NCBI RefSeq assembly: GCF_013391085.1
Contig: NZ_CP058334.1
Span: forward strand, 310,001-374,000
Reading direction: 5' to 3'
Source: Natronomonas halophila
GTDB lineage: Archaea; Halobacteriota; Halobacteria; Halobacteriales; Haloarculaceae
DNA: 64,000 nucleotides
Shown: piece after piece, positions 3,531 through 61,284 of the stretch
How positions within the stretch are numbered: position 1 is the first letter of the stretch
How the letters are laid out: the number at the start of each line of letters is the position of its first letter
The notes under the pieces: model-generated
Databases searched by the model: none
What the model saw: the letters and a program-made list of their open reading frames with translations, nothing else
What the model was told of the DNA's origin: nothing
Made by a program: the position numbers and the translations under genes

Positions 3531-3640
3531 AGCGAGGGTATCGACCGCCTACTAAAAGAGTACCAGCATCGGTTTTCGAGTAAGGAGATTCCTAAACGGT
3601 CGAACAGAGGGGCGGGTAAAACAGACGTTAGCATCCGCGA

Positions 3641-3689
3641 GCGAACGGAGTGAGCGAGCGGTTCGCGGCGCCGAGCGAAGCGAGGCGCC
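3641..3689. repeat. Two back-to-back intergenic hairpins
   Basis: GCGAAC (3641-3646) pairs with GTTCGC (3661-3666). Directly after it, GGCGCC (3667-3672) pairs with GGCGCC (3684-3689) around the 11-base spacer GAGCGAAGCGA. The pair lies 37-85 bases past the stop of the aIF2-beta gene (minus strand). The interval 3531-3725 holds no gene that I can support. Similar hairpins occur near 61050-61190. Confidence 0.6.
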
Positions 3690-3725
3690 GTAGCGCGCCA
3701 GACCGGCGGAGCGTGCAAAAAGTGG

Positions 3726-4130
3726 CTAGTTCCCAGCTGCCGACCGCGCGCCGCAGGCCTCACACCGGAGCAGTTCGGCGCCGTTTTCCTTCTCGATACG
3801 CGTGTCCGGAAGGCCACACTCCGGGCAGATGACGTAGCCGTCGACGTATTCGTCCATGGCCTCCTGAACCCGGTTGCGACGGAACTCGCCGGTCAGGCGG
3901 AGCCGCCCCCGTTCGTCGATGGTCGCGGAGGTCCCGAGTTCGTTCTGGAGGTATTTCATCACGTGGTCCTCGGTGCGGTCCAGCGTGTCGATAGTGGACT
4001 GGAAGTTCTCGTAGACAGTGACGTTGCCCTCCTGTCGGACGTCCGGGTCGGGAAGGTCGAAGCGGCTTGCGGCCTCCTCGATATCGGGCGTCTCCTCGAT
4101 GGCGCGGTCGAGTTGCTCTTCGTAGTCCAT
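3726..4130 (-). CDS. eif2b: Translation initiation factor aIF2 subunit beta
   Basis: The 134-residue length is normal for archaeal aIF2-beta. The N-terminal helix is followed by a core with EGNVTVYENFQSTIDTL and by the RNA-binding-like part (LGTSATIDERGRLRLTGEF). A C-terminal zinc ribbon has C-x2-C (VICPECGLPDTR) and C-x2-C (LRCEACGA). With the alpha and gamma subunits it forms the factor that brings initiator Met-tRNA to the small ribosomal subunit. The other subunit genes are not in this window. A palindrome overlaps its upstream region (4139-4159). Confidence 0.93.
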   Translation of the reverse strand: MDYEEQLDRAIEETPDIEEAASRFDLPDPDVRQEGNVTVYENFQSTIDTLDRTEDHVMKYLQNELGTSATIDERGRLRLTGEFRRNRVQEAMDEYVDGYVICPECGLPDTRIEKENGAELLRCEACGARSAAGN

Positions 4131-38276: not shown

Positions 38277-38290
38277 GCCACTTTTTGCAC

Positions 38291-38479
38291 GAGAACACGG
38301 GTCGCGCCCGCTTCGGGGCGCGACCCCGGTTCTCGGCAAAAACATAGTGAAAATATGCGCGCCTCCTTTCTGCCGCCGCGCTCCCTACGGTCGCGCGGCG
38401 TTAGTCAGTCGGCGCTACGGCGGCTCGGCCTCCGGCCTCGCCGCCGGGAACCGCCTCGGGGGCCTTCTTCGAAGGCCCC
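38291..38479. repeat. Cluster of four GC-rich hairpins after the carboxylase gene
   Basis: In order: 38291-38309 pairs with 38316-38334 (17 of 19 bases match) around GCTTCG; GCCGCGC (38375-38381) pairs with GCGCGGC (38393-38399) around an 11-base spacer; GGCGGC (38419-38424) with GCCGCC (38440-38445); and GGGGCCTTC (38459-38467) with GAAGGCCCC (38471-38479) around TTC. The first could be a transcription terminator of the carboxylase gene. The interval 38277-38519 has no gene that I can support. Confidence 0.6.
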
Positions 38480-38519
38480 GCTCGGCGGATGCTACTTAAA
38501 AGGAGATCAATCAGCCGAT

Positions 38520-60189: not shown

Positions 60190-61050
60190 ATGAGCGATTA
60201 CGCGAAAGACGTGCTCGTTTCGGCCGACGAGGTCGAAGCGCAGCTCGACGAATTCGAGAGCGACGATTCGGACAAGCGACTGGTAGAGGTTGACGTGGAC
60301 ACCGAGGCCTACGACGAGGCCCACGCCCCCGGTGCCATCGGCTTCAACTGGGAGACGGACCTGCAGGACCAGACCACCCGCGACATCCTCTCGAAGGAGG
60401 ACTTCGAGAACCTGCTGGGTGCCCACGGCATCACCGAGGACAGCACGGTCGTCCTCTACGGTGACAACTCCAACTGGTTCGCGGCCTACACCTACTGGCA
60501 GTTCAAGTACTACGGCCACGACGACGTGAAACTCCTCGACGGCGGCCGCGAATACTGGATCGAGAACGACTACCCGACCACGGACGAGGTTCCGGAGTTC
60601 TCGGCTGTCGACTACGAGGCCTCCGGCCCGCGCGAGTCCATCCGTGCCTACCGAGAGGACGTCGAGAACGCCATCGACCGCGACCTGCCGCTGGTCGACG
60701 TCCGCTCGCCCGAGGAGTTCACGGGCGAAATCCTCGCCCCCTCGGGCCTGCAGGAGACCGCCCAGCGTGGCGGCCACGTCCCCGGCGCCCAGAACATCTC
60801 GTGGGCGGCCGTGACGAACGACGACGGCACCTTCAAGGACCGCGACGAACTCGAGACCCTCTACGCCGAGTACGGCATCGACGGCGACGAGACGACCGTC
60901 GCCTACTGCCGTATCGGCGAGCGCTCGTCGGTCGCCTGGTTCGCTCTGCACGAGCTGCTGGGCTACGAGGACGCCATCAACTACGACGGGTCCTGGACCG
61001 AGTGGGGCAACCTCGTCGGCGCCCCCATCGAGAAGGGCGAGGCTGAGTAA
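60190..61050 (+). CDS. Thiosulfate sulfurtransferase (rhodanese, two domains)
   Basis: A 286-residue protein. The N-domain has VVLYGDNSNWFAAYTYW with no active Cys. The C-domain has TVAYCRIGERSSVAWFAL, with active C240 and Arg at 241 and 245 in the thiosulfate-type loop. PLVDVRSPEEFTGEI and GGHVPGAQNISW mark the family. Paralog of the gene on the other side. Its last codons GGCGAGGCTGAGTAA recur 138 bases downstream. Confidence 0.9.
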   Translation: MSDYAKDVLVSADEVEAQLDEFESDDSDKRLVEVDVDTEAYDEAHAPGAIGFNWETDLQDQTTRDILSKEDFENLLGAHGITEDSTVVLYGDNSNWFAAYTYWQFKYYGHDDVKLLDGGREYWIENDYPTTDEVPEFSAVDYEASGPRESIRAYREDVENAIDRDLPLVDVRSPEEFTGEILAPSGLQETAQRGGHVPGAQNISWAAVTNDDGTFKDRDELETLYAEYGIDGDETTVAYCRIGERSSVAWFALHELLGYEDAINYDGSWTEWGNLVGAPIEKGEAE

Positions 61051-61188
61051 CGGGAGATTCGAGCGGAGCGAGAATCTCCGTATGGGCGAGCGGGGAGCGA
61101 AGCGACCCGCGAGCCGCGAAGCGCACGAGGCCTCGTAGCGAAGCGGTGAGCCCGTAGGGCGAACCGCAGAGCAGGCGAGGCTGAGTAA
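61036..61188. repeat. Hairpin-rich block bounded by a 15-base direct repeat
   Basis: GGCGAGGCTGAGTAA occurs at 61036-61050 (gene end) and at 61174-61188. Between are hairpins: GGAGATTC/GAATCTCC (61053-61079) around GAGCGGAGCGA; GCGGG/CCCGC (61090-61110) around GAGCGAAGCGA; the palindrome ACGAGGCCTCGT (61125-61136); and GCCC/GGGC (61050s region of the next line, 61150-61160). It has no protein-coding frame that I can support. It lies 3' of the rhodanese gene. Confidence 0.65.
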
Positions 61189-61284
61189 GCCCACCCCTTG
61201 GCCGACCGTCGTATCGTCACCTAACTGCACCATTTTTCGCGCCGGACCACACCCTTCAAGCGGTGCGTCTCCCAAGTGGGTCGC

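What the first reader, a model, noticed from the sequence alone, without database searches (positions are those of the whole stretch)
3641..3689. Hairpins with variable stems but a shared 11-base spacer (first site)
GGCGCC-GAGCGAAGCGA-GGCGCC at 3667-3689 has the same spacer as two hairpins near 61.05-61.11 kb whose stems differ (GGAGATTC and GCGGG). A fixed loop with free stems is unusual: known REP-like elements conserve the stem. The three sites follow gene ends. They could be a family of mobile or RNA elements, or a protein-binding loop.
Basis: partly seen in the sequence, partly recalled or inferred. Interest (0 to 1): 0.6.

Follow-up and report, generated by a model that had tools for sequence, protein, structure and literature searches.

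The report
Haloarchaeal gene-end hairpin elements
The odd hairpin is a piece of a repeated, folded DNA element that salt-loving archaea carry directly behind the ends of important genes; it probably acts as a two-way stop signal for transcription, and I found no description of it.

Summary
In 464 kb of this genome, 58% of GAGCGRAGCGA copies have arms of at least 5 bp, against 0.2% for random 11-nt spacers.

The spacer is not truly fixed. It reads GA|NC|GNA|GN'|GA: a C(GNA)G triloop, two Watson-Crick pairs (the outer one covarying), a tandem G.A/A.G step, then a free stem. Among 144 possible 2x2 mismatch steps, GA/GA occurs 21 times; the others average 0.14.

Site 1 is the second hairpin of an internally deleted copy (3630-3725) of a multi-copy element, "type A". 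This genome has about 84 copies, and a covariance model hits 133 of 391 Halobacteria genomes. Skeleton bases are conserved while stems covary. The 3' end (GTGCAAAAAGTGG) lies 2-9 nt from a convergent gene's stop codon in most copies; at site 1 it touches the stop of eIF2-beta. In several genera the element sits behind thermosome genes.

The 61-kb hairpins are a related sense-strand island behind a rhodanese gene, flanked by a 15-bp direct repeat that includes the stop codon.

Best reading: a portable two-sided terminator at gene ends, built from minihairpins that are unusually stable as DNA and spread by copying. Termination is inferred, not shown. I found no Rfam or literature match.

The parts
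3630..3725 (+). Type A gene-end element, internally deleted copy (AGCATCCGC ... GTGCAAAAAGTGG), antisense to its host gene
   Evidence: Same ends and linkers as other copies; deletion between two GGCGCCGTAGCGCGC stretches shown by comparison with full copies
3635..3661 (+). First hairpin: CCGC stem, two tandem GA steps, C(GGA)G tip
3666..3690 (+). Second hairpin, the one reported: CGGCGCC stem, GA step, GC(GAA)GC tip
   Evidence: same stem with other tips in other copies
3684..3698 (+). GGCGCCGTAGCGCGC, the stretch shared by second hairpin and last hairpin of full copies; probable deletion junction
3713..3725 (+). 3' box GTGCAAAAAGTGG; on the host (minus) strand it gives the T5 tract CCACTTTTTGCAC directly behind the stop codon
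   Evidence: 83 exact GTGCAAAAAGT in the genome, none for the reversed control
3726..4130 (-). Host gene of site 1, translation initiation factor eIF2-beta
   Evidence: PF01873, E 3e-38
38278..38493 (-). Full-length type A copy in the same window, convergent with the gene that ends about 4 nt from its 3' box (5' end approximate)
   Evidence: Covariance model hit G000:348278-348417, E 2e-26; boundaries; host distance
60190..61050 (+). Rhodanese-family gene; its stop codon TAA is 61048-61050
   Evidence: PF00581, E 3e-31
61036..61050 (+). First copy of the direct repeat GGCGAGGCTGAGTAA, including the stop codon
61053..61079 (+). Sense-strand hairpin with stem GGAGATTC and tip GAGCGGAGCGA
61085..61115 (+). 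Sense-strand hairpin GGC-GA-GCGGG-GA-GC(GAA)GC-GA-CCCGC-GA-GCC
   Evidence: similar two-hairpin modules elsewhere
61143..61167 (+).
61175..61189 (+). Second copy of the direct repeat GGCGAGGCTGAGTAA

Best explanation
The first-site hairpin belongs to a family of portable gene-end elements of Halobacteria. SHOWN: multi-copy elements with a conserved skeleton and covarying stems; hairpin tips obeying C(GNA)G plus a tandem GA step; the 3' end placed a few nt behind the stop codon (in one case a tRNA 3' end) of a gene on the other strand; the same placement behind thermosome genes in several genera; strong copy-number differences between congeners. INFERRED: the element is a two-sided terminator. 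For the host gene it puts a T5 tract (CCACTTTTTGCAC) directly behind the stop codon. For transcripts arriving from the other side, full copies offer a GC-rich stem followed by ATTTT or TTTTT and then a second T5, so antisense read-through into the host gene would be blocked. Spread is by copying and by recombination between copies; no mobilising enzyme was identified. The deleted copy at site 1 keeps only the host-side T5 and two hairpins. The 61-kb island is a sense-strand relative that would act as a block of 3'-UTR hairpins (mRNA end protection or termination).
For: Position: in 37 of 47 copies a convergent gene ends 2-23 nt past the 3' box, 34 of them within 9 nt; 11 of 13 copies in another genus lie 1-7 nt from a convergent stop, and one lies 5 nt from the 3' end of a tRNA-Met. 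Orthologous hosts in different genera. A T5 within 17 nt of a stop is otherwise uncommon: 13 of 545 genes, 7 of them type A. T5C terminates 95% of transcripts in Haloferax volcanii (PMC7237163). Covariation at 11 of 27 pairs. Model hits in 133 of 391 genomes.
Against: No transcript data. The element-side T tracts are missing in the site-1 copy. The structured part is far larger than an archaeal T-tract terminator needs. The near absence of wobble pairs and of GNRA loops is unusual for a structure selected as RNA. In 16 of 47 copies the next gene on the 5' side does not point toward the element, so no antisense transcript needs blocking there. Ten of 47 copies have no convergent gene end assigned, possibly through gene-finder errors.
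Confidence: 0.5

Rival explanations
1. REP/REPIN-like selfish DNA: hairpins folded in single-stranded DNA are recognised and copied by an HUH (Y1) transposase or a similar enzyme. The position behind stop codons is a target preference, or simply where insertions are harmless.
For: High copy number in one genome and few in congeners; GNA tips are hyperstable in DNA (PMC4686876); one coherent strand per island in 40 of 42; direct repeats including the stop codon around the window island, a G134 island and an insert in L360; two-hairpin modules inserted within other hairpins.
Against: Only one Y1 gene in this genome, and congeners with few elements have as many or more. No consistent target duplication for type A (boundaries). 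Distances of 2-9 nt to stop codons and the same host genes across genera suggest maintained function.
Confidence: 0.27
2. A structured non-coding RNA transcribed toward the host gene, acting as an antisense or regulatory RNA with a protein-binding internal loop (GACTAM / RCWGGA).
For: Conserved unpaired skeleton bases and a conserved internal loop; T tracts at the element's own 3' side; TATA-like sequences upstream of some copies.
Against: No consistent promoter spacing; no GNRA tetraloops among 153 hairpins; almost no G-U pairs; the site-1 copy lacks the conserved loop.
Confidence: 0.12
3. A mutational by-product: single-stranded ends fold back on hyperstable GNA tips and are copied, making perfect inverted repeats with any stem sequence, without selection on function.
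For: Free stems, near-perfect Watson-Crick pairing, few mismatches; the P1 domain differs as a block at one locus shared by two congeners.
Against: Does not explain the GA/GA steps, the conserved skeleton, or the fixed position behind the same genes. It may still explain how stems turn over.
Confidence: 0.08
4. Chance matches in GC-rich DNA.
For: The 11-mer also occurs without long arms (5 of 12 copies have arms under 5 bp in 464 kb).
Against: Arm excess of about 280-fold; GA/GA 21 against 3.5 in fourth-order Markov sequence; 41 of 42 hairpins intergenic in seven genomes; compensatory changes.
Confidence: 0.01

Closest known systems
REP / BIME / REPIN elements of bacteria (GTAG and CGTC families, RAYT-associated)
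   Same: Short intergenic palindromes in many copies, often behind genes; proposed roles in termination and mRNA protection; possible single-stranded DNA mobility (PMC3733652, PMC3116915)
   Different: REP stems are family-conserved with a GTAG or CGTC tag and often show G-T pairs (PMC3733652). Here stems are free, the tip grammar is conserved, wobble is nearly absent, larger elements have conserved linkers, and no RAYT link was found.
Archaeal T-tract terminators (Haloferax volcanii T5C; aCPSF1-dependent termination)
   Same: T5 right behind the gene 3' end on the host strand (PMC7237163)
   Different: Those are simple T tracts, sometimes with a nearby hairpin, not a multi-copy structured element
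GNA DNA minihairpins, d(GCGAAGC)
   Same: The tip GC(GAA)GC is exactly this sequence; GNA loops on at least two G-C pairs (PMC4686876)
   Different: Known from in vitro work and aptamers; here a natural, repeated genomic tip combined with tandem GA steps
MITEs and non-coding insertion sequences of haloarchaea
   Same: Multi-copy, non-coding, patchy between species
   Different: No terminal inverted repeats in type A, no consistent target duplication, stems not homologous between copies

Membership tests
REP/REPIN | Family-conserved stem sequence in a 20-40 bp palindrome | tested here: not met
   Stems differ freely between copies and covary
REP/REPIN | GTAG or CGTC tag at the foot of the hairpin | tested here: not met
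   No constant tag at the hairpin feet in the listed islands; some feet are followed by TAGCG, part of the type A linker
REP/REPIN | Associated RAYT (Y1 transposase) in the genome | tested here: inconclusive
   One PF01797 gene in this genome and in G131; up to five in congeners, copy number unrelated to element number; RAYT type not determined
REP/REPIN | Many intergenic copies behind genes | tested here: met
Archaeal transcription terminator | T tract a short distance behind the gene end | tested here: met
   CTTTTTGCAC 2-9 nt behind most host stop codons
Archaeal transcription terminator | RNA 3' ends form at the site | not testable with these tools
MITE | Terminal inverted repeats | tested here: not met
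   Type A ends AGCATCC and GTGCAAAAAGTGG are not inverted repeats apart from a 4-nt GCAT/GTGC pairing
MITE | Target-site duplication | tested here: inconclusive
   Direct repeats flank the 61-kb island and a few others; none evident for type A by inspection of the boundaries
GNA DNA minihairpin | C(GNA)G loop on at least two base pairs | tested here: met
   104 of 148 GA-flanked tips have GNA loops; 86 of 132 triloops in type A are C(GNA)G
Rfam families | Match at gathering score | tested here: not met
   Only tRNAs in loci holding the elements; none in the window

The most novel reading that the evidence does not exclude
A class-wide structural code in haloarchaeal DNA: gene-end elements whose identity lies in a DNA-stable fold (C(GNA)G tip, tandem sheared GA steps, one conserved internal loop) rather than in stem sequence. 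They would be read on single-stranded DNA by an unknown protein, be kept behind the same housekeeping genes over long times, and also be able to multiply to more than 80 copies in one genome.
Probability: 0.25. Interest if true: 0.8.

Novelty: new variant of a known kind. Interest (0 to 1): 0.62.

Why it matters
Repeated palindromes are usually defined by conserved stems. Here the stem is free and the fold is kept, with strong covariation and a tight link to stop codons of housekeeping genes. It gives a testable case for portable terminators in archaea, for DNA-level constraint on hairpins (GNA loops, almost no wobble pairs), and for how structured repeats spread and exchange parts. It also supplies a covariance model for an apparently undescribed feature that is detectable in about a third of the Halobacteria genomes sampled.

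Tried and rejected
Plain 3'-UTR RNA hairpins on the sense strand: rejected for site 1 and type A, which are antisense to the host. Chance: rejected. Energy-model test of DNA against RNA triloops: uninformative, because the available parameter sets do not distinguish triloops. G-T versus A-C mismatch asymmetry: too few mismatches, 11 in all. Kink-turn: considered, not fitting, since no 3-nt bulge is seen. Rfam: no match. Y1 transposase partner: no copy-number link. Empty site for site 1: L072, L082 and L083 lack the element behind eIF2-beta, but synteny there was not established. Genome-wide stop-spanning direct repeats: few, and no more than similar repeats inside coding regions (6 against 10), so only the cases around hairpin islands are cited. 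The first gene finder gave wrong strands for some genes and was replaced; the second is also home-made and imperfect. Literature searches for haloarchaeal palindromic repeats gave nothing matching.

Full report
OBSERVATION. The window is from a 3.21-Mb, single-contig genome in class Halobacteria (inferred from named records sharing a 21-mer of the first hairpin). The genus is probably Natronomonas, because the congener G037 has the contig length I recall for N. moolapensis; that is memory, not a test. The three hairpins are present. The 11-mer is over-represented in the window, occurs 95 times in the genome, and is present in all 145 sampled Halobacteria genomes, 58 of 58 genera. The built-in control, the pattern read backwards, is confounded because GAGCGAAGCGAG contains both. 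In 464 contiguous kb, 58% of copies have arms of 5 bp or more, against 0.2% for random spacers.

WHAT THE SPACER IS. GAGCGAAGCGA reads as GA|GC|GAA|GC|GA: a C(GNA)G triloop on two Watson-Crick pairs, then a tandem G.A/A.G step, then the free stem. Among 148 sites with GA on both sides and at least 5 outer pairs, the closing pair is C-G in 107, the loop is GNA in 104, and the second pair is G-C 48, C-G 45, A-T 27, with few non-pairs. Of 144 possible 2x2 steps inside C(GNA)G hairpins, GA/GA occurs 21 times and the others 0.14 on average; a fourth-order Markov control gives 3.5 for a similar count. GA steps can repeat, as in the first hairpin at 3635-3661. In 1.66 Mb from seven genomes, 41 of 42 such hairpins are intergenic. 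Numbers are highest in this genome and in one congener and low in the other five, so the strict form is unevenly distributed. C(GNA)G with two G-C pairs is known as a hyperstable DNA minihairpin, Tm 78 C for GCGAAGC (PMC4686876).

THE ELEMENTS. Hairpins cluster in islands; in 40 of 42 multi-hairpin islands all lie on one strand. Islands resolve into at least two multi-copy elements. Type A runs from AGCATCCGC to GTGCAAAAAGTGG (or TTCG, TTTC, GTTC endings), about 83-346 bp, with conserved linkers: [hairpin]-TTCC-[hairpin]-TAGCG..GACTAAC-[hairpin]-GGCTGGA..CGCGCATATTTTCNCCACGTTTTTGCC-[hairpin]-GTGCAAAAAGTGG. An alignment of 25 copies from three genomes gives 27 predicted pairs, 11 with compensatory changes, and almost no G-U. 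The genome has 83 exact 3' boxes and none for the reversed control, and 84 model hits. Across 391 Halobacteria genomes 133 have a hit at E up to 0.001, in 42 of 86 genera. At most 9 candidates per genome were scored there, so copy numbers are lower bounds, and weak hits near the threshold may include chance. Strong hits (E below 1e-20) are in the same family; good ones (about 1e-19 to 1e-10) also in family f2.

SITE 1. 3630-3725 is a type A copy with an internal deletion. GGCGCCGTAGCGCGC occurs in the second-hairpin region of some full copies and in the last hairpin of another; the window copy joins the two. It keeps two hairpins and the 3' box but lacks the P1 domain, the CATATTTT tract and TTTTTGC. 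Its 3' box touches the stop codon of eIF2-beta (PF01873). A full copy is at about 38278-38493 on the minus strand.

POSITION. In 37 of 47 copies a gene on the other strand ends 2-23 nt past the 3' box, 34 within 9 nt. In G131 (its first contig has the length of PXQV01000001.1), 11 of 13 copies lie 1-7 nt from the stop of a convergent gene, and a twelfth lies 5 nt from the 3' end of a tRNA-Met (L290); the thirteenth (L295) abuts a tRNA-like 3' end that neither tRNA search called. At least 11 head-to-head pairs exist (coordinates), as expected if each copy belongs to its own gene. Host genes, read from their protein sequences, include thermosome, eIF2-beta and other housekeeping genes; names other than the Pfam-tested ones are my reading. 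Five G131 host proteins match G000 host proteins, covering four G000 genes, although only 47 of the 83 G000 copies were readable. Behind thermosome genes type A is found in G000 (two paralogs), G131 (two), several genomes of genus g3, G007 and G035. In other genomes the same spot carries sense-strand hairpins: L357, L366, L365, L359. In yet others it carries neither.

THE 61-KB ISLAND. It follows the stop codon of a rhodanese gene (PF00581) on the sense strand and resembles the two-hairpin module behind thermosome stops in other families. It is flanked by GGCGAGGCTGAGTAA, which includes the stop codon. Similar direct repeats occur around one island in G134 and around an insert in L360. Genome-wide such repeats are rare, so this is suggestive only.

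MECHANISM. On the host strand the 3' box reads CCACTTTTTGCAC, a T5 tract right behind the stop. T5C terminates 95% of transcripts in Haloferax volcanii (PMC7237163). T5 within 17 nt of a stop is otherwise uncommon: 13 of 545 genes, 7 of them type A. In the other direction a GC-rich stem is followed by ATTTT or TTTTT and another TTTTT. Hence the inferred two-sided terminator. Against a purely RNA-level structure: in 153 hairpins of at least 6 bp there are no GNRA loops, 132 are triloops and 86 of these are C(GNA)G, and wobble pairs are nearly absent. A DNA-level fold during transfer or replication is therefore a serious alternative or addition. At one locus shared by two congeners, flanks and most of the element match while the P1 domain differs as a block, which points to exchange between copies.

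COMPARISON. It works like REP elements and like T-tract terminators, but it is not a REP family by the tested features (stem conservation and tag not met). No Rfam or literature match was found within the libraries searched, which miss most subscription papers. I rate it a new variant of a known kind.

Noticed in passing
G000 C1 1055540-1056150, 1235820-1236420, 2063000-2063650, 2330700-2331250, 2420750-2421220 (L240-L255): A second multi-copy element (type B, about 600 bp): two arms diverging from a central TTTATAAA, each ending in a covarying domain CCTGGTGGACT(GA/CG)AAGGGCGARGC ... GTCGCTA[hairpin]TAGCGACCGCC ... GCYGAGGGCTTY, with the GA strand pointing outward. 16 matches to ACTSRAAGGGCGAR in the genome; three loci holding it gave no Rfam match.
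   Followed up: partly
G000 C1 2477398-2477541, 1695755-1695974, 682308-682482, 664149-664364: Two-hairpin modules of about 60 bp appear inserted inside the tips of other hairpins or in element linkers, so elements are nested.
   Followed up: partly
L305 and L306 (G049 and G037): The same type A copy at an orthologous place in two congeners: flanks and last hairpin match, but the P1 hairpin domain is replaced as a block.
   Followed up: partly
G037 C1 about 342948-343439 (offset 142948-143439 of the sample starting at 200001; L187): A long intergenic island with a 235-bp repeat of three GA hairpins, and further GA hairpins on the opposite strand.
   Followed up: no
L135 and L152: The exact 21-mer GAGCGAACGGAGTGAGCGAGC also occurs in records labelled Gemmatimonadota (twice, 58 bp apart) and Xanthobacteraceae; L152 holds one GA hairpin. 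Could be wider distribution or contaminating contigs.
   Followed up: no
   Followed up: yes
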